A stretch of DNA of 64,000 nt, taken from assembly GCF_002218025.2 (NCBI RefSeq), contig NZ_AP018681.1, positions 310,001-374,000 on the forward strand. Direction: 5' to 3'. The position numbers were made by a program, and so were the translations under genes. Positions 40,943 to 56,269 of the stretch are shown piece by piece. This stretch comes from Vibrio casei. Lineage in GTDB: Bacteria > Pseudomonadota > Gammaproteobacteria > Enterobacterales > Vibrionaceae. Each line of letters starts with the position of its first letter. Positions within the stretch are counted from its first letter, which is position 1. The notes beneath the pieces are model-generated. The model was not told the DNA's origin, ran no database searches, and was given only the letters and a program-made list of their open reading frames with translations.

Positions 40943-42349
40943 ATGACTAAATCAACCGAACAGTTACTGAATATTGACCGTAATAGCGTTTTTCATTCTT
41001 CAACCCATCTTAAGCAATATGCGGCAGGTGAGTTACCAGGGCGCATTATTACCGGAGGCAAAGGTATTCGCATTACCGATTCCGAAGGGATTGAGTTAAT
41101 TGACGGCTTTGCCGGCCTCTATTGTGTCAATATTGGTTATGGTCGAGAAGAAATGGCAGAGGCGATTTATGAACAGGCCAAAAAACTGGCGTATTATCAT
41201 ACTTATGTTGGCCATACTAACGAGGCATTAATCGAACTTTCTGATCGTATTTTGAAAATGGCACCGGAAGGAATGAGTAAAGTGTATTACGGCTTATCGG
41301 GCAGTGATGCGAACGAAACTCAACTCAAATTAGTGTGGTACTACAACAATGCCAGAGGGTTACCCCGTAAGAAAAAAATCATTTCTCGTGATCGTGGGTA
41401 CCATGGGTCGAGTATTGCTTCTGGTTCGATGACAGGCCTGCCAATTTTCCATGCGCACTTTGACTTACCTTTAGAGCGTATTAAACACACCATTGCTCCA
41501 TGTTATTACCGACGAGAAGTTGAAAATATGAGTGAAATTGAGTTTTCTCAGTTTTGCGCCGATCAACTTGAAGCGCTAATTTTACGTGAAGATCCCGATA
41601 CTGTAGCGGCCATGATTGCTGAACCAGTATTAGGCACCGGAGGCATTGTTCCGCCACCAAAAGGTTACTGGCAAGCCATTCGCAAAGTATTAGACAAATA
41701 TGACATTTTATTAATTGCGGATGAAGTCGTGTGTGGGTTTGGTCGGTTAGGATCGAGTTTTGGTTCCACGCATTATGATATGAAGCCAGATCTTATGACG
41801 GTTGCCAAAGGGTTAACATCAGCCTATTTGCCTTTGTCTGGCGTTATTATTGGTAAGAAAGTATGGGAAGTATTAGAAGATGGTACCGATCAGTGGGGGG
41901 CAATTGGACATGGTTACACTTATTCCGGACACCCAATGGGAGCGGCAGCCGCGTTATGTAATTTAGATATTATTGAACGTGAACATCTTGTCGAGAATAG
42001 CCATGATGTCGGGCAATATTTACAGCAGCGTATGAATGCGACTTTTGCTGATCATCCATTAGTGGGTGAATCGCGAGGGGTTGGTTTATTGCATGGACTT
42101 GAGTTTTCATCGGATAAATCCCATCGGGCGCATTTTGATCCAAGCTTAAAGGTGGGGCCACAAATTGCCGCGGCATGTTTAGAGCGTGGGCTCATCGCTC
42201 GGGCAATGCCTCACGGCGATATCTTGGGTTTTGCACCACCGCTTATTGCGACTAAAAGTGATATTGATCAAATGGTCGACATTACGGAACAAGCGATCAA
42301 CCAAGTGATGGATAAATTGGTCACATCAAACGGTTTCGTTGGTAGATAA
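40943..42349 (+). CDS. doeD: Class III aminotransferase, DoeD-like
   Basis: 468 residues; PLP-dependent omega-transaminase fold with substrate segment YYGLSGSDANETQLKL, cofactor DEVVCGFGR (Asp260) and Schiff-base Lys289 in LMTVAKGLTSAYLP. In the pathway DoeD converts 2,4-diaminobutyrate to aspartate semialdehyde. AAGGAG lies 6-7 bases before ATG 40943, preferred over ATG 40937 and GTG 40919. Ends the doe-type cluster. Confidence 0.82.
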   Translation: MTKSTEQLLNIDRNSVFHSSTHLKQYAAGELPGRIITGGKGIRITDSEGIELIDGFAGLYCVNIGYGREEMAEAIYEQAKKLAYYHTYVGHTNEALIELSDRILKMAPEGMSKVYYGLSGSDANETQLKLVWYYNNARGLPRKKKIISRDRGYHGSSIASGSMTGLPIFHAHFDLPLERIKHTIAPCYYRREVENMSEIEFSQFCADQLEALILREDPDTVAAMIAEPVLGTGGIVPPPKGYWQAIRKVLDKYDILLIADEVVCGFGRLGSSFGSTHYDMKPDLMTVAKGLTSAYLPLSGVIIGKKVWEVLEDGTDQWGAIGHGYTYSGHPMGAAAALCNLDIIEREHLVENSHDVGQYLQQRMNATFADHPLVGESRGVGLLHGLEFSSDKSHRAHFDPSLKVGPQIAAACLERGLIARAMPHGDILGFAPPLIATKSDIDQMVDITEQAINQVMDKLVTSNGFVGR

Positions 42350-42391
42350 AAATAAAGCTTTGTGTCGCAGCAGGATAGTGAACGTTTAGGT

Positions 42392-42434
42392 GGGAGAAGA
42401 GTTGTTACCCGAGTATATTTTCCTTCTCCCTTTT
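42392..42434 (+). terminator. Terminator after the aminotransferase gene
   Basis: GGGAGAAG (42392-42399) pairs exactly with CTTCTCCC (42423-42430), followed by TTTT. Confidence 0.75.
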
Positions 42435-42577
42435 AAACTTTATCGTTAATGTGGTGATGCATTGCTCTCTTTGGTTATATAATGTGCACTTGAACTGAAA
42501 ATGTCATAAAAGGGCTTTTTTTTTCGATAAGTTATGGCATAGTAACTCCCGTCTTCAACAGACAGCTTACCAGTTAA

Positions 42578-42652
<75 letters not shown>

Positions 42653-42720
42653 AATCTTTTTGAAAAAATCCCAACATAAGTCATTGAAAAAAGAACACTC
42701 TTCATTGAGTGATTTTGCGT

Positions 42721-42757
42721 TTTTATGTCATTATTTATTCCTAATAATGACATAAAA
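42721..42757. terminator. 15-bp perfect hairpin after tRNA-Gly
   Basis: TTTTATGTCATTATT (42721-42735) pairs exactly with AATAATGACATAAAA (42743-42757) over a 7-base loop. It is symmetric and can end transcription from either side. Confidence 0.65.
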
Positions 42758-42856
42758 TTTAAGCCTACTGATGTGATTACTTTGTTAGCTCTGTTTAATA
42801 TCAAAAGGATAATAAACCAGTTCTGTATTTATAATTTCAAATAAGTCATCTACCTC

Positions 42857-42889
42857 ACACTCTAAAAACCCACATAATTTTTAGAGTGT
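42857..42889. repeat. 12-bp perfect inverted repeat at the edge of the heme operon
   Basis: ACACTCTAAAAA (42857-42868) pairs exactly with TTTTTAGAGTGT (42878-42889), 9-base loop. The space 42653-43079 holds this, the 42721 hairpin and a Fur-like site, but no convincing gene. Confidence 0.55.
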
Positions 42890-43009
42890 CAAATCAAGTC
42901 TATTAATTGTTTCGTTCTAGAAACGATTTATAGTACGCCTATTGATCACTGTTTCATTAATCAAAATATAATTTTTCATACCGGACAAATACAAATAATA
43001 ACATAAATA

Positions 43010-43031
43010 ATAATTGATCTCATTATCATTT
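43010..43031. promoter_or_regulatory. Candidate Fur box of the heme-protein operon
   Basis: TTGATCTCATTATCATTT keeps the CATTATCATT half of the Fur consensus with a degenerate other half. It lies 50-70 bp before the first gene of an operon containing a heme-type receptor, where iron control is expected. Confidence 0.5.
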
Positions 43032-43079
43032 GGGATTATTATGTACCAACTTTATGTTCACCTCTTGGTAATTTCTCGG

Positions 43080-45092
43080 ATGAAGTTTTTTTTAGCTGTT
43101 ACAACTCTGCTTTTCTTAATTTGTAAAAGTGGTCATACAAAAGATGATTTTTCTTGGTTGAAAGAAAGTAAGAAAGAAACTGAATCAATAGCTATTTATC
43201 TAAAAAATAAGAATGAATTATCTTCGCGATTTTTATTTAATTTAAAGCCTTTACAAGAAACCTTGATTAAAGAGTGGGAAGAATCTGCTCCTAATAAACC
43301 AGAAAAACCTTGGTTGATAAGAGGGAAGTTTGAGCTTAGCCTTATTAGATTAAATAATGAACGTGTTATAGCTATCCGCGATCGTAAAACCAAAGCTCAG
43401 AAAGTTTTATTTAATATTGAATATCGTTCATCTCAGCATGATTACTATCAACTTGGTGGTTGGTCTTTAAGCCCTAATGGTAAGCTGATTGCTCTGGCTG
43501 AAGATATTTTAGGAACCGAAGAGTATCGTATTGTTGTTATTAATTTGGAAAATCATAAAGAAAACGTTATTTCAGATAGAAGTGAACCAACATTAATTTG
43601 GACAAAAAACAATCAAAGCTTATATACAATCAAAAAAACAGAGTCTGATTTTAGACCATTTGCTCTTTATTTAACCAATGTAGATACGGGAGTATCGAAG
43701 AAAAAAATAGAAGAAGAAAAAGTTGAATTTCTATTATCAGTTTATTCTGCAAGTGATGACCGATATGCGATCGTCCAATCAAATAATGAAACAATGACAG
43801 AGCAAAGAATACTCAACTTAGAGTCTGGTAGTATTTCTGAGCCCATTAGACAAAGAAAGTCAGGTATTGAATATACGACAGATATCGCCAATGAATTATT
43901 GTATATACAAAGTAATATATCAGGAAAGTCGGCTTTATATTATCAAGAGTTATTAAAATCTGATAAATGGCAAGAACTATACTCTCCTGAAGAAGGAACA
44001 ACATTACAGAGCTTTCATTTATTTTCTGCTGGAATATTGATACGAGAAAAAAATAGCCAACAAGAGTCTATTGTTATCCTTCCTTATAAAGAAGGGAAAT
44101 TCATTCGATTTCCTTTAGCTCCTAAAGGTTCTGTAGGTTGGTTAAGCCATGTGGGTGATTTCAATAGTAATATTGCCTATATTCGCAGCATGTCTTTAGT
44201 TCAACCAGCCAAATGGGAAATGCTCGATATTGCTCATGCTCGGCGCAGCGTTATTAGTGAAGATACTTATCCTAACTATCATGTTTCCGATTATCAAACT
44301 GAGACGATTTTTGTTCCATCTGGTGACGTTAAGATTCCGGTTACATTAGCCTACAAAAAATCAATGTTTGATAAAAATTCTCCCGTTGTTTTATACGTCT
44401 ATGGTGCTTATGGCTTCAAGATGAAGCCCTACTTCATGCCTCAAATTACTTCAATGCTTGATCAGGGGATCGTTTATGCGATCGCACATGTTCGAGGAGG
44501 AGGGTATTACGGAGAGAAGTGGCATCAGGCAGGAAAAGGGGTAAATAAGCCTAAAGGTATTAGCGATTTTCTTTCAGTCGTTAAGGCCATGAAAAACTTT
44601 AATGAAGGGAACCGTAAAATAGCAGCAATGAGCTCTAGTGCTGGAGCCGTATTGATAGCCGCTGCAGTTAACCGACATCCCGAATATTTTTCGGCCATTA
44701 ATTTAAATGTTCCTTTTGTAGATGTGGTCAGTAGCATGGCTAACTCTAAGTTACCACTGACAGCTCAACAATATTATGAATGGGGAAATCCTCATGTTCA
44801 GGAAGAACTTTCTATTATGTCTTCTTTTGACCCCATGAGGAATATTCATTCGGCGAATTATCCACCCACCTTGGTGCGTATAGGTTGGCATGATAGTCGA
44901 GTCCCATACTGGGAGGGGGCTCAATATTTATCCTTAATATCTCAAAAAAGTAAGGGGCGAGGACCGTACTTATTACTGACTGATTTCGAAAGTGGCCATT
45001 CAGTTGACCAACGCAAGGCTTTAACCCAACAAGCGATGGACTATGCCTTTTTAATCCACTTTTTATCATTACCTGAAATAACGGAGCTGTAA
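43080..45092 (+). CDS. Prolyl oligopeptidase-family serine peptidase (S9A), exported
   Basis: 670 residues from the ATG at 43080, which begins a signal-like segment MKFFLAVTTLLFLICKSGHT; an ATG at 43041 would add 13 residues and cannot be excluded. N-terminal beta-propeller (to about residue 400), then an alpha/beta-hydrolase domain with PVVLYVYGAYGF, HVRGGGYYGEKWH, nucleophile Ser520 in SSSAG, Asp in WHDSRVPYWEG and His in ESGHSVD. The triad is complete, but the nucleophile elbow has Ser where the family normally has Gly (GxSxG). Such enzymes trim short peptides. It directly abuts the receptor gene (stop followed at once by ATG), so a periplasmic role on imported or released peptides is inferred. 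Confidence 0.88.
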   Translation: MKFFLAVTTLLFLICKSGHTKDDFSWLKESKKETESIAIYLKNKNELSSRFLFNLKPLQETLIKEWEESAPNKPEKPWLIRGKFELSLIRLNNERVIAIRDRKTKAQKVLFNIEYRSSQHDYYQLGGWSLSPNGKLIALAEDILGTEEYRIVVINLENHKENVISDRSEPTLIWTKNNQSLYTIKKTESDFRPFALYLTNVDTGVSKKKIEEEKVEFLLSVYSASDDRYAIVQSNNETMTEQRILNLESGSISEPIRQRKSGIEYTTDIANELLYIQSNISGKSALYYQELLKSDKWQELYSPEEGTTLQSFHLFSAGILIREKNSQQESIVILPYKEGKFIRFPLAPKGSVGWLSHVGDFNSNIAYIRSMSLVQPAKWEMLDIAHARRSVISEDTYPNYHVSDYQTETIFVPSGDVKIPVTLAYKKSMFDKNSPVVLYVYGAYGFKMKPYFMPQITSMLDQGIVYAIAHVRGGGYYGEKWHQAGKGVNKPKGISDFLSVVKAMKNFNEGNRKIAAMSSSAGAVLIAAAVNRHPEYFSAINLNVPFVDVVSSMANSKLPLTAQQYYEWGNPHVQEELSIMSSFDPMRNIHSANYPPTLVRIGWHDSRVPYWEGAQYLSLISQKSKGRGPYLLLTDFESGHSVDQRKALTQQAMDYAFLIHFLSLPEITEL

Positions 45093-47222
45093 ATGAAACC
45101 GCATCAATGGAGTGCTGCCACATTGAGTCTACTTGCATCAAATTTTGTGTACGCAGAGGCTGACATATTTAATGAGGTTGTAGTGACGGCTAATAAATAT
45201 GAAGAAAACTTGTCTCAAACTGCTGGCTCTGTCGCTGTCATTAATACTGATGATGTTCGAGAAGAAGGCGCTACTGAATTGTATGACGTATTAACGCATG
45301 AACCTGGAGTGAATGTAACAGGAGGTGCTGGACGCCCACAGAATATTACGATTCGAGGCATGAGTGGGAATAGAGTCGAGATAATTAAAGATGGTATATC
45401 AACGTCAGATGGCTTTGGTGCTGATGATCTAAATGATAGCGCTGGTCGTAATTCTTTTGATATTTCGACATTAAAGAAAATACAAGTTGTAAAAGGAGCG
45501 AGCTCAACAAGTTATGGGTCTGGTGCTATAGGCGGTGTTGTTATTCTCAGTTCATACACACCTGAAGATCTTTTAGGAAGTAAAGATTTTTACTCTGATA
45601 TTTCTACTACCTATACAGGAATTAGTAATAAATACCGAATATCTTCCAATGTGGCTTTTCGTACGGAGAGCACCAGTAGTTTATTTAGTGTTGGATATTG
45701 GTCAGGAAATGAAAGTCGTAATTATCAAAGTGATCTTTACAATCGAGATGTTGAAGGGACAAGTTTTGAATATACCCTACATCATTATTTAAGTGATCAA
45801 TGGTTGTTAAAAGCAAAAGCTGAGATATACAACGAAAAAATGAATACGCTTGAAGGTTCATCATCTCTTCAACCTGATGGTATTTGGAGTATTGGTGACT
45901 ATAACGAAGAAACTTCAACGACAACTTATCTAGCATGGATTGGAGCTGAATATGATGCTGATCATATTTGGATGGATAGTTTAGATACAAAGGTTTATTA
46001 CCGGTTTAGTGAATATAAGGAAGGTACTAATCGTTTAATGAATCGTGAAAATAATGGAGTAACCGAACTTCGCCGAGAAATTGATAATCGTGAATTTAAT
46101 GACCAATTGTTGGGTTTTTCCATGGATTTTGATAAAGAGATATATAGTAAGGGGCTTACTCATACTATTGTTTATGGAGGGGTAGCTGAGACCTCATATC
46201 ACGATCGTCCAGTTCATGATACCACTTCGGATTGGAATGGAACCACTTCTAGTAACTCAGCTCCTTTTGCGCCTGCCCGAAGTTATTCTTTAGGAGTCTT
46301 CTTACAAGATTCTATTTCAATGGGAGCATGGACTACTATGCTTGGCTTGAGATTTGATGCTCATAAATTAATGGCAGAAAAAAATACTTCAGCCGAGTTT
46401 TATGATTTGAAAGATAACTCTAGCCATGAATTATCACCTAGTGCTTCACTTACATATCAATTCACGAACGAGCTTAATGCTTATGTCAGTTATAAGCATG
46501 GATATCGAGCCCCTGAATACGATAAAACATATGGTTATGTGAGTCATGAGTTTGTTCCAATTACACCTTTCGTTATTTTACCAAACTTCAATTTAGAAGC
46601 CGAAACCAGTGATAGCTTTGAACTAGGTTCCAAATATGACAGTGGCTCTTTACGGATATATACCGCTATTTTTTACAACAAATTTGAAAACTTTATTAGT
46701 GTTGTTGATCAAGGGTTTAATAGTTCAACGGGATTATTTGAAAAGAAATTCGACAATTTTAATGGGGTTGAAACTTATGGCGCTGAACTATCAATTGAAT
46801 ATGCATTTAATAGTTCATGGAGTGCGCTAGGAAAAGCAGGTTGGGTTGATGGAGAAGATGGTAATGGTGAATACGTTCGTACAATTACACCATTAGAAGG
46901 TAATTTCACTCTAAATTATACGAAAGATATTTTTAATAGCTATGCACGTGTTAATTGGGCTGGATCAATGGATCGAACACCAAGCTGTGCAACGGAGCTT
47001 GGTTTACAAACGACCTGCGCAACCACCTCGGGATGGGCAACTTTCGACATGGGGGTTGGTGTTGAAATGGTAAAAGACCTTTCTATTAATTTGAATATTC
47101 TTAATTTATTCGACCGTGAATATACTCGGTATCAAGATGTTGCTGGTGTTTCTAGTTCACAAACTCATTTTTCAACTCAGCCTGGTCGATATTTCACTGT
47201 TAATGCACGTTATGCATTTTAA
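45093..47222 (+). CDS. TonB-dependent heme/hemoglobin-type receptor
   Basis: 709 residues: signal peptide ending near NFVYAEA, TonB-box-like FNEVVVTANK, plug (NITIRGMSGNRVEIIKDGI, IQVVKGASSTSYGSGAIGGVV) and barrel ending NARYAF. Two hallmarks of heme receptors are visible: a FRAP-type box YRAPEYDKTYGY at about residue 471 and an NPNL-type box LPNFNLEAETSDSFELG at about 495-510, with a His in YVSHEF between them, where heme receptors have a ligand His. Best read as a heme or hemoglobin receptor. Adjacent peptidase and protease genes support a protein-bound substrate. Exact ligand unproven. Confidence 0.85.
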   Translation: MKPHQWSAATLSLLASNFVYAEADIFNEVVVTANKYEENLSQTAGSVAVINTDDVREEGATELYDVLTHEPGVNVTGGAGRPQNITIRGMSGNRVEIIKDGISTSDGFGADDLNDSAGRNSFDISTLKKIQVVKGASSTSYGSGAIGGVVILSSYTPEDLLGSKDFYSDISTTYTGISNKYRISSNVAFRTESTSSLFSVGYWSGNESRNYQSDLYNRDVEGTSFEYTLHHYLSDQWLLKAKAEIYNEKMNTLEGSSSLQPDGIWSIGDYNEETSTTTYLAWIGAEYDADHIWMDSLDTKVYYRFSEYKEGTNRLMNRENNGVTELRREIDNREFNDQLLGFSMDFDKEIYSKGLTHTIVYGGVAETSYHDRPVHDTTSDWNGTTSSNSAPFAPARSYSLGVFLQDSISMGAWTTMLGLRFDAHKLMAEKNTSAEFYDLKDNSSHELSPSASLTYQFTNELNAYVSYKHGYRAPEYDKTYGYVSHEFVPITPFVILPNFNLEAETSDSFELGSKYDSGSLRIYTAIFYNKFENFISVVDQGFNSSTGLFEKKFDNFNGVETYGAELSIEYAFNSSWSALGKAGWVDGEDGNGEYVRTITPLEGNFTLNYTKDIFNSYARVNWAGSMDRTPSCATELGLQTTCATTSGWATFDMGVGVEMVKDLSINLNILNLFDREYTRYQDVAGVSSSQTHFSTQPGRYFTVNARYAF

Positions 47223-47231
47223 GGATATTTA

Positions 47232-49538
47232 ATGAAATATTATTACTTAATTATTTTTTATTCGCTTTCTTTTGGCATTTTTGCGGGGGAATGGGATTAC
47301 CCAGCTGGTAACGAAGTTGTAACTAATAAAATAGAAGCTCAGCGTTATTTAGAAACGCATTATCCTAATATCGGTGAATTATCCTTTCGTTATGAAAGCC
47401 AAAGTATTTTAGGTCATCAATATAATTTTAATCTTAGCCAAGAAGGAGAATATAAAGCGCAACGAGTTATTGTTTTACATTCAAATAAGAATGATATTGT
47501 TGAGCGAATATTTAAAAGCCTTGAAGATACTATTTTAAGAAATGGTGAAGCGACAATAGCCGCTGAGATTGAAAAACCTCGTCGATTAAAGGCCGATTTA
47601 CCCCCCTCAATTGGTAGTGGAATATTAGTACCTCAAACGATTAATATTGTTGATCCCGATTTAAGAACAATGGATAGATTGACGGCTCCAAAATACGCCT
47701 GGACCGATATATCTCAATACCCGATTGCTCCTCACTTTGTTTTAAAGCAAGTTGAAATGCTGGAAGTCGGAAACCGTATCTATTTATCCAATAATAGAGT
47801 GACTCAAGTTGATGCTGATTATTTGGAAGAACAAGATCGCAATACCGATGTTTGGTCTAAAAGTTCTAATATATCGTTTATGCCTAAAGATGGCATTACA
47901 TTTTTTGATAGTAAATCGGACTTACAAAACTTAATATTTGCAAGCCCCGATTTCACCCAAGTTATGGCTTTTTATCAAATAGATCAATCTTTACAGTATT
48001 TAGAATCATTAGGTTATCAATTGTTTTTGGAACCCGTTAAATTTGATGCGCAGGGTTTAGCAAATAATAATTCCAGTTATTACTTTGGCCCCAAGGCGTT
48101 GATGTTTGGTGTTGGGAGTGGTTCTGCAGATGCTTTAGATGCTGATGTTATTACTCATGAATTAGCGCATGGCATCCATTATCATATATTACCTGATTGG
48201 GCATATGGGCACACAGGAGCAATCGCAGAAGGATTCGCTGACTATTGGGCGGGTTCCAATAGCTATCGCCAGCAATTTGAGTTAGGTGATACCTTTGAAA
48301 TTGATACGGTTTTCAATTGGGATGGGTATTTTGGTAGTAAAATTTCAACTCGTAGCCTTTGGAATCAACGTGCACAATATTTTGAGCAAAATGAGTATAG
48401 AGCGCATGAAAGTGTTGGTGGTGAACTGGGTGATGAGCTGTGGTCGACACCGCTATTCCAGACTTTAAAACAAAGCGTCGAACTTTACGGAGGAATCGCT
48501 TTTAAAGAAGTTGATACTTTAGTATTGGAGTCAATGTTTGGTATGGGGCGCGGTATGAAAATGCATGATCTTGCTGAAAGCATGCTTTATGTCGCACAGG
48601 CACTTTACCCATCAAGAGATTATTATATTCTTTTAAAACAGAATCTAAACAAGCACGGATTATTGAAACAACCATTCCTCCTTGAAATGAATAACCGCTA
48701 TGTAGATCCATTGAAACCAATCGAGATAAGAATTGTGAGTAATGGAAGATCAGCAAAGATAGAAGGAAAAATAGAAGCTTCGATTGGCGGTTATAAAAGT
48801 ATTAAAGCTGAAAAAGTTGATACTATTGTTACTCAAATTGAGTTACCAACCACGTCTACCTGTGGGGAAGCGTTTGATATAACAGCTAATATCAACTATC
48901 AATTTTCACCTAACTTAATAGCGTCGGACTGGTTATCCACTTCTTCATTGGTACTTGGTATTCCGGTTTTTAACCAAGAGATTAAAGTCCAGAATTCAAT
49001 CATTCCTGATGCATATCTATCAAACTCTGGAACGATTAATTACGGCTTTAAAACCTTTAATTTCATCATTAAAAATGATTTAGGTATTGTCTCGGATGAC
49101 TTCGTAGTATATCTAAACTTCAACCACTCTGATTTTTCTGATCTACAAGTAACACTTGTATCACCGTCCGGTAAACGACAAATATTACTTCAGAATCAAC
49201 ACTACTCACTCTCTCACCGTACATTTTATTGGGTGGCCAAATATGATGAAAAGCTTCAAATATTCTTAGGGGATCCAATTAGAGGCTCGTGGCGTTTAGA
49301 AGTTACAGATTTAACCCCAGAAGATAAGGGTAAACTTATTGAATGGGGAGTGGGTAGAGTCACTCACTACGACTGTGAAAATGAGCCTACTATCGAAACA
49401 CCTAACGACAATAATGATGAAGATAAAATACAACAATCCTCCTCTGGAGGTTCAGTTTCACTGGGAACCTTATTGGTATTTGTATTGTTATTTTATCGTC
49501 GATGCTTTTTTATTAAAAATAAGGACAGAGTTATATGA
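47232..49538 (+). CDS. Secreted M36-like metalloprotease with P domain and GlyGly-CTERM
   Basis: 768 residues. Signal peptide at 1-18, a propeptide-like region, zinc site HELAH at 309-313 with third ligand Glu333 in AIAEGFADYW (the gluzincin/M36 pattern), a P/proprotein-convertase-type beta domain at about 590-715 (DLQVTLVSPSGKRQILL, GSWRLEVTDLTPEDKGKLIEWGV), an Asp/Asn-rich linker, and a C-terminal SSSGGSVSLGTLLVFVLLFYRR tail. That tail is a GlyGly-CTERM signal, cut by rhombosortase on type II-secreted surface proteins. Starts 10 bases after the receptor and overlaps the next gene (ATGA). Likely degrades host or environmental protein at the cell surface. Confidence 0.88.
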   Translation: MKYYYLIIFYSLSFGIFAGEWDYPAGNEVVTNKIEAQRYLETHYPNIGELSFRYESQSILGHQYNFNLSQEGEYKAQRVIVLHSNKNDIVERIFKSLEDTILRNGEATIAAEIEKPRRLKADLPPSIGSGILVPQTINIVDPDLRTMDRLTAPKYAWTDISQYPIAPHFVLKQVEMLEVGNRIYLSNNRVTQVDADYLEEQDRNTDVWSKSSNISFMPKDGITFFDSKSDLQNLIFASPDFTQVMAFYQIDQSLQYLESLGYQLFLEPVKFDAQGLANNNSSYYFGPKALMFGVGSGSADALDADVITHELAHGIHYHILPDWAYGHTGAIAEGFADYWAGSNSYRQQFELGDTFEIDTVFNWDGYFGSKISTRSLWNQRAQYFEQNEYRAHESVGGELGDELWSTPLFQTLKQSVELYGGIAFKEVDTLVLESMFGMGRGMKMHDLAESMLYVAQALYPSRDYYILLKQNLNKHGLLKQPFLLEMNNRYVDPLKPIEIRIVSNGRSAKIEGKIEASIGGYKSIKAEKVDTIVTQIELPTTSTCGEAFDITANINYQFSPNLIASDWLSTSSLVLGIPVFNQEIKVQNSIIPDAYLSNSGTINYGFKTFNFIIKNDLGIVSDDFVVYLNFNHSDFSDLQVTLVSPSGKRQILLQNQHYSLSHRTFYWVAKYDEKLQIFLGDPIRGSWRLEVTDLTPEDKGKLIEWGVGRVTHYDCENEPTIETPNDNNDEDKIQQSSSGGSVSLGTLLVFVLLFYRRCFFIKNKDRVI

Positions 49539-49893
49539 CATTAAAATTATCCATACTTTCTGCTGCTATTTTACTCGCGGGATGCGGTGGTGGTTCAGAT
49601 GGAAGCTCGGATGTAAGTGAGCCGACTTATCAAGTATCAGGACAGATCACTGCACTAGCAAGCCAAGGCGATGAAAAAGTTTGTGCGGATCTTAATGGTG
49701 ATTTCATCTGTGGCTCCAATGAGCCATCTACAACGGCAAGAGATGGTTCATTTTCGATTACAAGCCATCAAAAATCTATTCTAGAATCACCTCTTGTTGT
49801 CGAATTAGATATTGGTACTTCTTCATTGCCCTCTCTGTCAGACTAGTTGTCGCGCTTAATATTCAACCATTAAACAGAGGGCGTGGAGTAACA

Positions 49894-50391
49894 ATGAAAC
49901 ATTATTCAGCGCAAAGCAAAGAGTCGGCTCTTCAGAAGATGATGCCTCCAAATAATATAGCAATAGCCCAATTATCAATCGAGATGGGGATTGGTGAATC
50001 AACCTTGTATAATTGGCGAAAACAAGCAATTGATAAGGGGCATTTAGTGCCAGGTGATGGAAAGAATGCTGAGCAGTGGTCATCAGCAAATAAATTCTCA
50101 GTCGTGTTGGAAACAGCCTCTTTAAATCAAGCTGAGTTAGCGGAATATTGCCGAGGCAAAGGTCTTTATGTGGAACAAGTATCGGCTTGGCGAAATGCGT
50201 GTATAGATGCAAACGCTAACGTTAAAGAGCAAGAAAAAGCCTTCTCCACCGAAACAAAGAAAGATAAAAAACAGATCAATCAATTAGAAAAGGAGCTACG
50301 TCGAAAAGATAAGGCACTCGCTGAAACCGCAGCACTATTGGTGTTAAGAAAAAAAGCAAATGCGATCTGGGGGGAAGCCGAGGACGAATGA
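49894..50391 (+). CDS. IS3-family transposase OrfA (copy 1)
   Basis: 165 residues. N-terminal helix-turn-helix (IAIAQLSIEMGIGESTLYNWRKQAI) for end binding and a C-terminal Lys/Glu-rich coiled coil (KKDKKQINQLEKELRRKDKAL) likely for multimerisation. Near its end, codons AGA AAA AAA GCA give an A7 slippery run at 50349-50355; a -1 shift leads into the orfB frame and would make a 514-residue OrfAB transposase. Stop overlaps the orfB ATG. Identical in copy 2. Confidence 0.92.
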   Translation: MKHYSAQSKESALQKMMPPNNIAIAQLSIEMGIGESTLYNWRKQAIDKGHLVPGDGKNAEQWSSANKFSVVLETASLNQAELAEYCRGKGLYVEQVSAWRNACIDANANVKEQEKAFSTETKKDKKQINQLEKELRRKDKALAETAALLVLRKKANAIWGEAEDE

Positions 50392-51437
50392 TCCTCGACT
50401 CAGCTCGCATTCAAGCAGTTAAACTAGTTAATGAAGCTGTGAGTTCTGGTGCGCCAAAGTTTAAAGCTTGCCGTGAACTTGGGATCAGTGTCCGGACGTA
50501 TCAACGTTGGACTGTTGACGGGAACATAAAAACAGATGGTAGACCAATATCTCAGCGCCCTGAGCCAAAAAATAAGCTATCAAAAGCAGAGAGAGATAAC
50601 ATATTAGCCATCGTTAATAGCGATGATTTTAAGAGCTTACCACCAAGCCAAATCGTCCCTACATTAGCAGATGAGGGTATTTATCTTGCTTCTGAATCAA
50701 CATATTATCGTGTTCTTCATGAAGAAAAACAGCAAAACGCTCGCGGACGTAGTCAGATAAAAGAGAGAAAAGTACCGACGACACACTGTGCTACAGGGCC
50801 AAACCAAGTGTGGTGTTGGGATATTACTTGGTTACCAGGCCCCGCTAAAGGGCTGCATTTTTATTTATATTTGATACTCGATATATTTAGTCGAAAGATT
50901 GTTGGATGGGAAATTCATGATGACGAATCAGCAGAAAATGCATCAATATTAATTAAGAAAGCTCATTTAAAAGAAGGAGTTAAAGATAATCCTCTGGTAC
51001 TGCATTCGGATAATGGAAGCCCAATGAAAGGCTCATCAATGCTTGAAACACTTTATAGTTTAGGTGTCGTGTCGTCTTTTAATCGTCCTAGGGTGAGCAA
51101 TGATAATGCTTATGCTGAGTCGATATTTAAAACGTGTAAATATCGCCCTGACTATCCGTATAAAGGGTTTTCAACAATTGATGAGGCGCGTAGTTGGGTG
51201 TTGAAATTTAGCCACTGGTATAATTTTAACCACAAACATAGTGGCATCAAATACGTCAGCCCACATCAAAGGCATTCAGGATTAGCGGGTGACATATTGG
51301 CTAATAGAAAAGAAGTTTATCAAGGTGCTAAAGATGCTCACCCTGAGCGCTGGAGCGGTAATATCCGTAATTGGGATTTACCAAAAGAAGTGTACTTAAA
51401 CCCTGAACAAAATAGTGTCAAGGCTGAGAGTGCATAA
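50388..51437 (+). CDS. IS3-family transposase OrfB (copy 1)
   Basis: 349 residues with an rve integrase core: first Asp in WCWDITWLPG, second Asp in LHSDNGSPMKG, and Glu in NDNAYAESIFKTCKY, the DDE triad. An upstream HTH_21-like region (SVRTYQRW, EGIYLASESTYYRVL) precedes it. Start is ATG overlapping the orfA stop (ATGA); the functional enzyme is probably the -1 frameshift fusion. Intact, so the element may be active. Confidence 0.94.
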   Translation: MILDSARIQAVKLVNEAVSSGAPKFKACRELGISVRTYQRWTVDGNIKTDGRPISQRPEPKNKLSKAERDNILAIVNSDDFKSLPPSQIVPTLADEGIYLASESTYYRVLHEEKQQNARGRSQIKERKVPTTHCATGPNQVWCWDITWLPGPAKGLHFYLYLILDIFSRKIVGWEIHDDESAENASILIKKAHLKEGVKDNPLVLHSDNGSPMKGSSMLETLYSLGVVSSFNRPRVSNDNAYAESIFKTCKYRPDYPYKGFSTIDEARSWVLKFSHWYNFNHKHSGIKYVSPHQRHSGLAGDILANRKEVYQGAKDAHPERWSGNIRNWDLPKEVYLNPEQNSVKAESA

Positions 51438-53103
51438 CGTAGTGATCGCGACAACTAGTTTGACAAACACCGATTGTCGAGTTACGTGGGAAATAAAACT
51501 AATGCTTTTTTGGTTGCTCCTAGTCAAAGAAAAACAACCGGCAATGAAATTAATGTGATTACGACTCTGGTTGCAAGCCAAATGTCTAACGGTCTGACGC
51601 TTAACGATGCCATTAACTCAATTAAGATACAGTTAAATAGCATCGGATTGACCGCGACAAATAATCTTCTTAATGAAGGTAATAGTAATCAATACCAAAT
51701 TTTAGAGCAAAATATTCTAACTTTGATTGCTTCAATTGATAAATCTAATGCTAATTTTTTGCTTTCTATTCTGAGTAGTAATTTATCGGATTATCAGTCC
51801 TTTATTTTGGCACCAGCACCAACTGAGAGTGCTATACAAGCCTTAATTATTGCTCTAAATAAAGCAACGGAAGGAAAAGACTTTAATGATACAGGGTTGG
51901 TGGAATATTACAGCGATAATGGTAGTAGTTTCAACGCCCCTAGTGATTACTTGGGACAAGATGCGGATTATGGTCATGATAAAAATAGTGGTGGTTTCTT
52001 ATTTACAAAATTAGACTTTAATGGGCGCCCTTTAAAGGATGAAGCTGAACAATGGTCATGCGTTAAAGACCAACGAACAGGATTAGTTTGGGAAACAAAA
52101 AGTGATGATTTAGCATCTCCTCAATTTAAAGATAAGTTATTCGCTTATCAAGTGAGTGGAAAATTTGAACCTTACCAAGAAGATATTGATATGCTCAGTT
52201 GTTCGGATGAAATCTGCACAACTGAAGACTATGTGAATTATTTAAATAAAAATACTGTCTGTGGGATTAATAATTGGCGATTACCTACCTTTGGTGAATT
52301 CTATGACATTATTGATTTTGGTATTAAAGAAAAAGATTTCAATGGTGATGTCTATGGTTTAAGCCCTGATTATTTCCCAAGACAGAGCATTATAAGTGAC
52401 CTTGCATCCGGAGAAGTATGGACCTCAACTGAGTTCTTTACGGAATACGAGGCGACTAAAATTCCTCATAGTCGAGTAATACTTGCTGCGTTGACTCGTG
52501 GGATATATAGAGGAACAACATACCCGGTTAATATTTATAGTGATAAAGTCGAAGTTGATATGGGAGCATCATACCAGCTTCCAATTCGTTTAGTATCAGA
52601 AATGGAGTCTGTTAAATGAAATCATTAAAATTGTGTACACTTTTATATCTTATTCCCATGAGCGCCATGGCTGCACAAGAGTGTTCTCAGAATATGACCA
52701 AATCGGCTCCGAATGCTCGATATGAATTTAATAACAACGGCACAATAAAAGATCGCATCACTGGCTTGACTTGGATGCGATGTCCATTAGGTAAAACTTG
52801 GGATAGTACCGAGGATACATGCTTAGGTGATGGACAGGATATGTTTTGGCAGGCTGCTTTATACGATGTTCAATCAATAAATCAAAATCCAAGCCACGCT
52901 CTTCATAATTTTGCAGGAATAAAAAACTGGCGGATGCCAAATATTAAAGAGTTAGTGACATTGTCTGAGCATTCTTGCTTTGCTCCTGCTCTGAATAAAA
53001 AAGCCTTCTCCAATGCTTTTCCGTATTCCACTAATCAAGAAAATTATGGAGCCGGAGATATTCGTTCTCGGTGTTTGTCAAACTAGTTGTCGCGATCACT
53101 ACG

Positions 53104-54153
53104 TTATGCACTCTCAGCCTTGACACTATTTTGTTCAGGGTTTAAGTACACTTCTTTTGGTAAATCCCAATTACGGATATTACCGCTCCAGCGCTCAGGG
53201 TGAGCATCTTTAGCACCTTGATAAACTTCTTTTCTATTAGCCAATATGTCACCCGCTAATCCTGAATGCCTTTGATGTGGGCTGACGTATTTGATGCCAC
53301 TATGTTTGTGGTTAAAATTATACCAGTGGCTAAATTTCAACACCCAACTACGCGCCTCATCAATTGTTGAAAACCCTTTATACGGATAGTCAGGGCGATA
53401 TTTACACGTTTTAAATATCGACTCAGCATAAGCATTATCATTGCTCACCCTAGGACGATTAAAAGACGACACGACACCTAAACTATAAAGTGTTTCAAGC
53501 ATTGATGAGCCTTTCATTGGGCTTCCATTATCCGAATGCAGTACCAGAGGATTATCTTTAACTCCTTCTTTTAAATGAGCTTTCTTAATTAATATTGATG
53601 CATTTTCTGCTGATTCGTCATCATGAATTTCCCATCCAACAATCTTTCGACTAAATATATCGAGTATCAAATATAAATAAAAATGCAGCCCTTTAGCGGG
53701 GCCTGGTAACCAAGTAATATCCCAACACCACACTTGGTTTGGCCCTGTAGCACAGTGTGTCGTCGGTACTTTTCTCTCTTTTATCTGACTACGTCCGCGA
53801 GCGTTTTGCTGTTTTTCTTCATGAAGAACACGATAATATGTTGATTCAGAAGCAAGATAAATACCCTCATCTGCTAATGTAGGGACGATTTGGCTTGGTG
53901 GTAAGCTCTTAAAATCATCGCTATTAACGATGGCTAATATGTTATCTCTCTCTGCTTTTGATAGCTTATTTTTTGGCTCAGGGCGCTGAGATATTGGTCT
54001 ACCATCTGTTTTTATGTTCCCGTCAACAGTCCAACGTTGATACGTCCGGACACTGATCCCAAGTTCACGGCAAGCTTTAAACTTTGGCGCACCAGAACTC
54101 ACAGCTTCATTAACTAGTTTAACTGCTTGAATGCGAGCTGAGTCGAGGATCAT
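53104..54153 (-). CDS. IS3-family transposase OrfB (copy 2)
   Basis: Identical 349-residue product to copy 1, with the complete DDE motif. Overlaps its orfA by ATGA. Confidence 0.94.
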   Translation of the reverse strand: MILDSARIQAVKLVNEAVSSGAPKFKACRELGISVRTYQRWTVDGNIKTDGRPISQRPEPKNKLSKAERDNILAIVNSDDFKSLPPSQIVPTLADEGIYLASESTYYRVLHEEKQQNARGRSQIKERKVPTTHCATGPNQVWCWDITWLPGPAKGLHFYLYLILDIFSRKIVGWEIHDDESAENASILIKKAHLKEGVKDNPLVLHSDNGSPMKGSSMLETLYSLGVVSSFNRPRVSNDNAYAESIFKTCKYRPDYPYKGFSTIDEARSWVLKFSHWYNFNHKHSGIKYVSPHQRHSGLAGDILANRKEVYQGAKDAHPERWSGNIRNWDLPKEVYLNPEQNSVKAESA

Positions 54154-54647
54154 TCGTCCTCGGCTTCCCCCCAGATCGCATTTGCTTTTTTTCTTAACAC
54201 CAATAGTGCTGCGGTTTCAGCGAGTGCCTTATCTTTTCGACGTAGCTCCTTTTCTAATTGATTGATCTGTTTTTTATCTTTCTTTGTTTCGGTGGAGAAG
54301 GCTTTTTCTTGCTCTTTAACGTTAGCGTTTGCATCTATACACGCATTTCGCCAAGCCGATACTTGTTCCACATAAAGACCTTTGCCTCGGCAATATTCCG
54401 CTAACTCAGCTTGATTTAAAGAGGCTGTTTCCAACACGACTGAGAATTTATTTGCTGATGACCACTGCTCAGCATTCTTTCCATCACCTGGCACTAAATG
54501 CCCCTTATCAATTGCTTGTTTTCGCCAATTATACAAGGTTGATTCACCAATCCCCATCTCGATTGATAATTGGGCTATTGCTATATTATTTGGAGGCATC
54601 ATCTTCTGAAGAGCCGACTCTTTGCTTTGCGCTGAATAATGTTTCAT
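54150..54647 (-). CDS. IS3-family transposase OrfA (copy 2)
   Basis: Identical 165-residue product to copy 1; the A7 slippery run is at 54186-54192 on the minus strand. Confidence 0.92.
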   Translation of the reverse strand: MKHYSAQSKESALQKMMPPNNIAIAQLSIEMGIGESTLYNWRKQAIDKGHLVPGDGKNAEQWSSANKFSVVLETASLNQAELAEYCRGKGLYVEQVSAWRNACIDANANVKEQEKAFSTETKKDKKQINQLEKELRRKDKALAETAALLVLRKKANAIWGEAEDE

Positions 54648-54955
54648 TGTTACTCCACGCCCTCTGTTTAATGGTTGAATATTAAGCGCGACAACTAGTC
54701 TGACAGAGAGGGTTCTTACGTATGGAGTAATACTTCATTATTAGAAACACAAGAAGTTTTTACTTTTGATGTTCGAAATGCCGAAATAATAGCTTATGCA
54801 CCTACGGCTATAGCAGGAAGTGTGCTACTCGTTGCTGAGGATTAGTTAGAAGCTAAATAATCTATTCAAAAAATATTTAGTGGCTAAATATTAATACTTG
54901 GTGCTACTCGTTATAACTTTCTTAAGTAAAATGGAGGAGTTGTATATTTATATGA

Positions 54956-54989
54956 ATGCAAATGATAATAACAATCATTTGCATTTTTT
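54956..54989. promoter_or_regulatory. AT-rich hairpin / Fur-like dyad upstream of sodA
   Basis: ATGCAAATGAT pairs with ATCATTTGCAT around AATAACA, followed by T residues to 54989. It can act as terminator of the heme operon, and the core TGATAATAACAATCA also matches a degenerate 7-1-7 Fur site about 100 bp before sodA, a gene commonly Fur-repressed. Both roles are possible. Confidence 0.55.
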
Positions 54990-55076
54990 ATTGAAAAGGT
55001 GGAAGATAGGGCTAGTGGTGGATTGCTGAACATGTGTGAATAATTGCCCATTAAAAGGATAATTAAGGAGAAATCT

Positions 55077-55685
55077 ATGAGTCATGAATTCCCAGCTTTA
55101 CCTTATGCGTATGATGCACTAGAACCCTATATTGATGCTCAGACAATGGAAATCCATTACAGTCGTCATCATAAGACTTATTTCGATAAATTTATGGCGT
55201 CTATTTCAGGTACGGAGCTTGAGCAGACATCATTGGATGATATTTTTGCTACTATCTCTCAGCATCCTCCAGCAGTTCGTAATAATGGAGGAGGGTACTA
55301 TAACCATATCGTGTATTGGCAATGCATGTCGTCGTCACCTCAATCGAAACCGACTGGCGATTTAGCAGCAAAAATTGATGAAACATTTGGGGATTTAGAA
55401 GAATTTAAGCAGCAATTTAGTGATGCTGCGGTGAATACTTTTGGTTCCGGCTTTGTTTGGTTAATTATTAAAGATGGCAATCTCGAAATCACCTCTACGC
55501 CAAATCAAGATAATCCTTTAATGGAAACATCATCTCGTCAAGGGCTACCTATTTTAGCGCTAGATGTATGGGAACATGCTTACTACATTAGCTACCGAAA
55601 CCGCCGACCCGATTATATTAATGCGTGGTGGAATGTGGTTGATTGGAAAGTGATTGAAGAAAATTATTTATCAGTTGTTGCTTAA
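55077..55685 (+). CDS. sodA: Superoxide dismutase, Mn-type
   Basis: 202 residues. Metal ligands His27, His77, Asp163 and His167 (EIHYSRHH, YYNH, DVWEHAYY). The residues that separate Mn from Fe enzymes point to Mn: NNGGG before the second His, and Gln144 in NQDNPL, where Fe enzymes have Gln in the first site and Ala in the second. A cambialistic enzyme is possible. AAGGAG 6 bases before ATG 55077 decides the start over one at 55044. Converts superoxide to peroxide in the cytoplasm. Confidence 0.93.
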   Translation: MSHEFPALPYAYDALEPYIDAQTMEIHYSRHHKTYFDKFMASISGTELEQTSLDDIFATISQHPPAVRNNGGGYYNHIVYWQCMSSSPQSKPTGDLAAKIDETFGDLEEFKQQFSDAAVNTFGSGFVWLIIKDGNLEITSTPNQDNPLMETSSRQGLPILALDVWEHAYYISYRNRRPDYINAWWNVVDWKVIEENYLSVVA

Positions 55686-55831
55686 CTCAATAATGAGAAA
55701 CTGTTGGTCATGATGGCTAACGGTTTCTAAGCGGTGATGGTATAAACAAAAAATGATCAACCGGTTTATTAATAGGTTTTTAATATATTGTTCTTTTAAT
55801 CGTTGATGCAGGTTGGGTGAGGGGATATGAA

Positions 55832-56269
55832 ATGAATGTGTCAGAGTGGGAGAAGCATGTACTGTTAGCGGATAAGGCGATGGAACAATACGACCATCTT
55901 CGAGGTATTTTGCATTACCAGCAAGCACTTGCATTAAGTGAAACTGTCGATGATGCAGTACACATTGATTTAAATGATAAACTAATGATATCGGTTATTT
56001 CTTGCCATAATATGGCGAAATTTTGGCGTGTGCTAGGTGATGATCAATATGAGCTTAAATATCTTGAACTGGCTTCAGAACGAATACTCACTTTGCTTCC
56101 TCAATGTCCTAATACATCGTGCGGTGAATTTATAGAATCATTAGGGTGTTGCCGCAAAGCGTTAGTTGAGTTTATGAAACGTCATCCTAATCCGTCATTG
56201 GCCAATTTGGTAAAAAGCTTAGACAGTGCAACGAACTGCAATCTTATTGCTAGATTCCGTATTAATTGA
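55832..56269 (+). CDS. DUF2753-family TPR-like protein
   Basis: 145 residues, all helical in appearance, resembling Vibrionaceae DUF2753 proteins (WEKHVLLADKAMEQYDHL, LHYQQALALSE, ISVISCHNMAKFWR, LLPQCPNTSCGEFIESLGCCRKALVEFMKRHPNP). The repeats look like tetratricopeptide helices, suggesting a protein-binding role; no function is known to me. GAGGGG lies 7 bases before ATG 55832. Confidence 0.85.
   Translation: MNVSEWEKHVLLADKAMEQYDHLRGILHYQQALALSETVDDAVHIDLNDKLMISVISCHNMAKFWRVLGDDQYELKYLELASERILTLLPQCPNTSCGEFIESLGCCRKALVEFMKRHPNPSLANLVKSLDSATNCNLIARFRIN

What the first reader, a model, noticed from the sequence alone, without database searches (positions are those of the whole stretch)
43010..54845. 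Five-gene operon that may release, import and process heme-protein: protease, receptor, peptidase, lipoprotein, DUF1566 protein
Seen: all genes are on one strand with spacing of 0, 9, -4, -4 bases (after IS removal), so they form one coupled unit behind a Fur-like site. Known: FRAP/NPNL-type TonB receptors import heme; GlyGly-CTERM proteins are surface-anchored via rhombosortase after type II secretion; S9 peptidases trim short peptides. Inferred: the surface M36-like protease with P domain degrades a hemoprotein, the lipoprotein and DUF1566 protein capture product or substrate, the receptor imports heme or a heme-peptide, and the exported S9 peptidase clears peptides. I know no described pathway with this exact set.
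Basis: partly seen in the sequence, partly recalled or inferred. Interest (0 to 1): 0.75.

Follow-up and report, generated by a model that had tools for sequence, protein, structure and literature searches.

The report
IS-broken copy of hutR/hvtA heme operon
These five genes are a Vibrio copy of an already described iron-regulated heme-uptake operon (hutR or hvtA); two of the genes are cut here by a jumping element, and what the secreted protease and its two partner proteins do is still unknown.

Summary
In detail: five same-strand genes at spacings 0, 9, -4, -4 behind a Fur-like site. The order is S9 peptidase, TonB receptor, metalloprotease, lipoprotein, DUF1566 protein. The set is not new. 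It matches the hvtA operon of V. vulnificus (ptrB, hvtA and three genes of unknown function; co-transcribed, Fur-regulated, hemin uptake) and the V. cholerae hutR operon. The protease position fits VCA0065, a putative secreted GlyGly-CTERM metalloprotease.

New here: the order is complete in 37 of 40 fetched loci, the other three being cut at contig ends. Among 247 Vibrionaceae genomes, strong receptor and protease matches occur together in 67 and apart in none. Aeromonas-type loci keep the five genes in another order. Both last proteins carry an Lcl_C (DUF1566) domain.

The proposed hemoprotein digestion is plausible but unshown, and one published result speaks against hemoglobin: HvtA supported growth on hemin, not hemoglobin, at 37 C. 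In this genome two separate IS3-family insertions cut the last two genes, and the S9 peptidase departs from otherwise invariant residues, so the operon appears to be decaying.

The parts
43009..43027 (+). Fur-like operator upstream of the first gene
   Evidence: 14 of 19 positions of the Fur consensus; same place and a similar core upstream of many orthologous operons
43083..45092 (+). exported S9 (oligopeptidase B-like) peptidase, ptrB position; nucleophile motif departs from relatives in this copy
   Evidence: PF00326, PF02897; signal-peptide-like N-termini in most relatives by eye; catalytic Ser, Asp, His kept in 44 of 44; 6 private departures at 73 otherwise invariant columns
45093..47222 (+). 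TonB-dependent heme receptor of the HutR/HvtA type
   Evidence: TIGR01785 over cut-off; P0009, named HutR, is identical to the operon receptor of L044; His485 in 49 of 49
47232..49538 (+). secreted zinc metalloprotease (gluzincin, M4/M36-like) with P domain and GlyGly-type C-terminal tail
   Evidence: HExxH plus Glu in 49 of 49; PF01483 in 49 of 49; tail test 40 of 49, window included
49535..52619 (+). lipoprotein gene with Lcl_C domain, interrupted by IS copy 1; pieces 49535-49828 and 51473-52619, read only apart
   Evidence: lipobox Cys followed by Gly or Asn in 49 of 49 relatives
49829..51472 (+). IS3-family insertion, copy 1, 4-bp direct repeats ATTG on both sides
52616..54845 (+). DUF1566 (Lcl_C) secreted protein gene, interrupted by IS copy 2; pieces 52616-53068 and 54713-54845, read only apart
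   Evidence: PF07603; fold matches the Legionella Lcl C-terminal domain in an intact relative
53069..54712 (-). IS3-family insertion, copy 2, inverted, 4-bp direct repeats TTCT on both sides

Best explanation
This is a copy of the hutR/hvtA heme-uptake operon, repressed by Fur when iron is plentiful. Established for relatives in print: co-transcription, Fur control, and hemin import by the receptor. Inferred here: the protease is exported by type II secretion and trimmed by rhombosortase at the cell surface. There, with two Lcl_C-domain proteins (one an outer-membrane lipoprotein, one soluble) acting as binding or docking partners, it frees heme from some protein- or matrix-bound source beside the receptor. 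The exported S9 peptidase then clears the small peptides, in the periplasm or outside. In this genome the operon is partly dismantled: the last two genes carry IS insertions and the S9 enzyme has drifted, while receptor and protease keep every otherwise invariant residue.
For: Operon identity: published hvtA operon (ptrB, hvtA, three unknown genes), RT-PCR, iron and Fur control; hutR is VCA0064 and VCA0065 is the GlyGly-CTERM putative metalloprotease, less abundant in supernatant without rhombosortase (5.4-fold, counted significant; 2.5-fold, not significant). Receptor: TIGR01785/01786 over cut-off, siderophore model under its cut-off; 24 of 24 operon receptors scanned match TIGR01785 at E up to 1e-40. 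Coupling: 37 of 40 loci complete; receptor and protease together in 67 of 247 genomes, neither in 180, one alone in 0, adjacent in 67 of 67; Aeromonas-type loci keep all five with receptor and S9 swapped, 6 of 6. The operon's two Lcl_C matches are the only ones found in this genome. Fur-like sites: mean best match 14.0 against 11.6 shuffled; 33 of 47 regions reached by at most 5% of shuffles. Secretion: GspD and rhombosortase present. HutZ present. Decay.
Against: V. vulnificus strains lacking hupA, venB and one tonB but keeping hvtA grew on hemin and not on hemoglobin at 37 C; the operon is much better induced at 25 C, so this does not settle it. HvtA is called a minor heme receptor in strain M2799. 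VCA0065 was found in supernatant and not in membrane fractions, which weakens surface docking. The window's tail scores 14.3 bits against the 15.5 cut-off of TIGR03501. Fourteen of 47 upstream regions, the window's among them, have no site better than the 5% shuffle limit. No substrate, heme binding or protein contact was tested. No His column reaches 80% in the Lcl_C proteins of 49 relatives.
Confidence: 0.55

Rival explanations
1. The accessory genes serve protein nutrition or surface attachment under iron limitation, not heme release: protease and S9 digest general protein, the Lcl_C proteins bind glycans or matrix, and the receptor imports free heme on its own.
For: HvtA mediates hemin but not hemoglobin use. 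The Legionella Lcl domain binds sulphated glycosaminoglycans and is the best fold match of the DUF1566 protein. No His column reaches 80% in the Lcl_C proteins of 49 relatives.
Against: Strong receptor and protease matches are never found apart in 247 genomes, hard to explain if the two work independently. Fur-like sites sit before the whole unit, in Aeromonas-type loci too.
Confidence: 0.3
2. The receptor imports a heme-bearing peptide made by the protease, and the exported S9 peptidase strips the peptide in the periplasm.
For: Oligopeptidase B-type S9 enzymes cut peptides of up to 30 residues (abstract); this one has a signal-peptide-like start and keeps its triad in 44 of 44. The five genes stay together.
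Against: Free hemin suffices for the published relative. S9 is missing in the Pseudoalteromonas locus L076, and in this genome its active-site motif has drifted.
Confidence: 0.12

Closest known systems
hvtA operon of Vibrio vulnificus (ptrB, hvtA, VV2_1550-1552) and hutR operon of Vibrio cholerae
   Same: Gene order and number, receptor family and size (709 here, 711 aa HvtA), S9 peptidase first, Fur-like site before the first gene, three following genes.
   Different: Here the last two genes are cut by IS elements and the S9 motif has drifted. Regulation and growth were not tested. The named V. vulnificus and V. cholerae sequences themselves were not compared.
GlyGly-CTERM / rhombosortase substrates of Vibrio cholerae (VCA0065, VesB and others)
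   Same: The protease is at the VCA0065 position of the operon and ends in Gly-Gly, a hydrophobic stretch and basic residues; rhombosortase gene present.
   Different: The window's tail is just under the TIGR03501 cut-off.
Legionella collagen-like protein Lcl, C-terminal domain (DUF1566)
   Different: Pfam shows no collagen-like part; conserved cysteines, whereas the Lcl domain lacks disulfides.
Oligopeptidase B (PtrB)
   Same: Fold family and catalytic triad.
   Different: Signal-peptide-like start, far under the PtrB equivalog cut-off (331 against 1313 bits), and the P1-defining glutamate is Gln in 27 of 44 including the window.

Membership tests
hutR/hvtA operon | S9 peptidase, heme receptor and three further genes in this order on one strand | tested here: met
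   37 of 40 relatives complete, 3 cut at contig ends
hutR/hvtA operon | receptor sequence groups with proteins named HutR | tested here: met
   P0009 (named TonB-dependent heme receptor HutR) is 61% identical to the window's receptor and 100% identical to the operon receptor of L044; no tree was built
hutR/hvtA operon | Fur-like site before the first gene | tested here: met
   weak in the window alone (7% of shuffles), conserved in relatives: 33 of 47 regions pass the 5% limit
hutR/hvtA operon | single transcript, iron-regulated | not testable with these tools
   shown for V. vulnificus in print
hutR/hvtA operon | direct match to the V. cholerae VCA0063-67 and V. vulnificus VV2_1548-52 records | not tested
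   no named record of either was fetched; nearest is unnamed L074, whose receptor is 88% identical to P0049, a cluster of 2138 sequences labelled V. tarriae
TonB-dependent heme receptor (TIGR01785) | score over curated cut-off | tested here: met
   384.6 against 316.85 bits
TonB-dependent heme receptor (TIGR01785) | His between FRAP and NPNL boxes | tested here: met
   His485 in 49 of 49; boxes are YRAP and PNFNL in the window
GlyGly-CTERM / rhombosortase substrate | TIGR03501 over cut-off | tested here: inconclusive
   window 14.3 against 15.5 bits, so under it; 22 of 49 sequences listed at E up to 1, scores against the cut-off not shown
GlyGly-CTERM / rhombosortase substrate | Gly-rich, hydrophobic, basic tail plus rhombosortase in the genome | tested here: met
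   tail in 40 of 49 by my script, window included; TIGR03902 160.5 against 84 bits
M36/M4 gluzincin metallopeptidase | HExxH plus downstream Glu | tested here: met
   His309, Glu310, His313, Glu333 in 49 of 49
M36/M4 gluzincin metallopeptidase | curated family model over cut-off | tested here: not met
   window: M4 16.4 against 22.4 bits; PF02128 M36 at E up to 0.01 in 26 of 49, not in the window
Oligopeptidase B (PtrB) | P1-defining Glu (Glu576 of the Salmonella enzyme) | tested here: not met
   Gln in the window, Gln in 27 and Glu in 17 of 44; position assigned by me from the alignment to a solved oligopeptidase B
Lcl_C / DUF1566 | PF07603 over cut-off | tested here: met
   49.5 and 71.6 against 34.9 bits

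The most novel reading that the evidence does not exclude
HutR-type receptors are the import end of a dedicated surface proteolysis machine. A secreted metalloprotease held near the receptor by two Lcl_C-domain proteins strips heme, or a heme-bearing peptide, from a hemoprotein other than free hemoglobin, so that the receptor never evolves without the protease.
Probability: 0.25. Interest if true: 0.65.

Novelty: new member of a known kind. Interest (0 to 1): 0.35.

Why it matters
The operon is known, but in the papers seen only its receptor has a tested role in heme use. The strict co-occurrence of receptor and protease over Vibrionaceae, and the reshuffled five-gene set in Aeromonas-type loci, argue that the three unstudied genes belong to heme uptake. 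If so, the published failure of HvtA to use hemoglobin at 37 C may be a matter of temperature or of the wrong hemoprotein, which is easy to test. The window itself looks like natural loss of the accessory part with receptor and protease kept.

Tried and rejected
Composite transposon around 51473-53068: rejected. Each IS copy has its own 4-bp direct repeat, so these are two separate insertions. My first boundary guess, from the 26-base inverted repeats, was 7 bases short at each end and showed no direct repeats.

Hemophore role for the Lcl_C proteins: not favoured. In 49 relatives no His column reaches 80% in either; of Met and Tyr columns only the start Met of each and, in the lipoprotein, Tyr36 and Tyr358 do. 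Against this, His74 of the DUF1566 protein reaches 90% in the 20 named relatives.

Wider spread: none of the 368 other class-level genomes matched the protease at 1e-30. At order level 38 of 394, own genome included, matched at 1e-20. Of the 20 places fetched around such matches, 10 hold protease relatives (728-1190 aa) without the other four genes (L107-L116).

Plasmid records gave further copies without annotation. An Rfam scan of 42000-56000 found only the tRNA. In one search my SOD query was in the wrong frame and gave nothing. PMC3120857 was a false hit. A receptor tree was not built.
Full report
WHAT IS THERE. The window lies in a 4.14-Mb genome on contig C2, 1.20 Mb long; the genus, Vibrio, is inferred from the named relatives. 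Five + strand genes follow each other with spacings 0, 9, -4, -4: an S9 peptidase, a TonB-dependent receptor, a metalloprotease with a P domain, a lipoprotein and a DUF1566 protein. Pfam gives Peptidase_S9 with its propeller, TonB receptor and plug, P_proprotein, and Lcl_C in both last proteins; these are the only two Lcl_C matches found in the genome.

BROKEN GENES. Two identical 1644-bp IS3-family elements, inverted to each other, sit inside the lipoprotein gene (49829-51472) and the DUF1566 gene (53069-54712). The genome holds at least 28 near-identical full-length copies (40 of 47 candidates were scored). Of 22 copies compared (2 in the operon and 20 of the other 26), 22 share the same ends and 20 have a perfect 4-bp direct repeat, both operon copies included. 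So these are two independent, probably recent insertions. The S9 gene is full length, but the window's protein departs at 6 of 73 columns that are invariant in the other 43 sequences; no other sequence departs at more than 2. Two of the six lie in the nucleophile motif. The receptor (0 of 68) and the protease (0 of 44) show no such departures. I read this as an operon losing its accessory part.

CONSERVATION. I looked at the 20 named loci that one search returned (Vibrio, Photobacterium, Salinivibrio, Psychromonas, Moritella, Aliivibrio and an unplaced Vibrionales) and at 20 unnamed Vibrionaceae loci, chosen from the 37 strong protease matches for which no locus had been given. The five genes stand in the same order in 37 of these 40; the other three are cut at contig ends, and one of them has receptor and protease each split in two frames. 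All 29 shorter loci of other genomes, some the same places as named loci, show receptor, protease and lipoprotein; S9 and DUF1566 lie largely beyond their ends. In the 247-genome family draw, the protease at E up to 2e-91 and the receptor at E up to 1e-110 occur in the same 67 genomes, next to each other in all 67 (gaps of 12-89 bases in 66, 512 in one), and in none of the other 180 does either reach its limit (at most four candidates per genome were scored). The 11 further genomes matched are weak hits (E 2.7e-8 or worse).

OUTSIDE THE FAMILY. Six of 6 Aeromonas-type loci (L075, named A. caviae, and five unnamed) carry receptor, S9, protease, lipoprotein, DUF1566, and Pseudoalteromonas NC201 (L076) carries the set without S9. 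Of the 20 places fetched, three have the Vibrio order (one with split S9 and lipoprotein frames), five are those Aeromonas-type loci, two contig-cut loci show receptor, protease, lipoprotein, DUF1566, and ten have a protease relative with none of the other genes. A changed order with the same content argues for a functional unit rather than mere inheritance.

REGULATION. The window's Fur-like site matches 14 of 19 consensus positions, not remarkable alone (7% of 40 shuffles). Over 47 upstream regions the mean best match is 14.0 against 11.6 in single-base shuffles; 33 of 47 are reached by at most 5% of shuffles, and 14, the window among them, are not. Four of six Aeromonas-type regions hold a perfect 14-of-14 7-1-7 site. 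This fits the published Fur control of the hvtA operon.

RECEPTOR. NCBIfam places it in the heme models over cut-off and under the siderophore cut-off; 24 of 24 operon receptors scanned match TIGR01785 at E up to 1e-40 (24 of the 49 in hand). The best solved relative is the heme receptor PhuR. His485, between the FRAP-like and NPNL-like boxes, is present in 49 of 49. No plug histidine reaches 80%; that some heme receptors use one is recalled. P0009, named HutR, is identical to the receptor of L044.

PROTEASE. HExxH and the third ligand Glu are in 49 of 49 and the P domain in 49 of 49; the M36 model finds 26 of 49 but not the window. The Gly-Gly, hydrophobic, basic tail passes my test in 40 of 49; of the nine failures, eight look similar by eye and one (L076) lacks the Gly pair. 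The genome has a rhombosortase, a GspD and HutZ over their cut-offs.

S9 PEPTIDASE. It is related to oligopeptidase B with the Ser, Asp, His triad in 44 of 44, but most of the 39 relatives printed start with signal-peptide-like segments by eye, and the P1-defining Glu is Gln in 27 of 44. I call it OpB-like, exported, of unknown specificity.

WHAT IS ALREADY IN PRINT. PMC6813434 (passages, section 14, part 1 of section 18) describes the V. vulnificus operon: ptrB, hvtA and three genes of unknown function on one transcript, iron and Fur controlled, strongly induced at 25 C, like the V. cholerae hutR operon. PMC8706444 (passages) calls HvtA the minor heme receptor of strain M2799. PMC12607845 (passages) calls HutR one of two high-affinity heme transporters. 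PMC6219818 and PMC13393428 (passages) list VCA0065 as a GlyGly-CTERM putative metalloprotease, less abundant in supernatant without rhombosortase (significant only in the first) and, in the second, not detected in membranes. PMC4496571 (passages) mentions a 43-kDa protease of V. parahaemolyticus thought to degrade hemoglobin, not tied to this operon in what I saw. Mey and Payne 2001, Datta and Crosa 2012 and Kawano 2018 were not read. Searches for VCA0063-67, VV2_1548-52 and hutR/hvtA with hemoglobin, metalloprotease or rhombosortase listed no paper that, in what I saw of it, gives the last three genes a role in heme use; the library lacks most subscription journals.

VERDICT. Identity with the hutR/hvtA operon: about 0.95. 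Accessory genes help heme release: about 0.45. Surface docking or heme-peptide import: speculative.

Noticed in passing
54964-54982: A further Fur-like site (15 of 19 consensus positions) lies between the operon and the iron/manganese superoxide dismutase gene at 55078, so that gene probably has its own iron-responsive promoter.
   Followed up: partly
G000, at least 28 places: The 1644-bp IS3-family element has at least 28 near-identical copies over three contigs, pointing to a recent burst that may have broken other genes.
   Followed up: partly
L054: In Salinivibrio socompensis the receptor and protease are each split in two frames, perhaps a second naturally decaying copy or sequencing errors.
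   Followed up: no
L107-L116: Relatives of the protease (728-1190 aa, mostly longer) occur without receptor or Lcl_C genes nearby in other families of the order.
   Followed up: partly
L118 7725-13341: The lipoprotein gene is split in two frames, and the DUF1566 gene lies about 1.3 kb further downstream than usual in this unnamed relative.
   Followed up: no
window 52616-53086, intact relatives L035-L054: His74 of the DUF1566 protein is kept in at least 90% of the 20 named relatives but under 80% of the wider 49.
   Followed up: no
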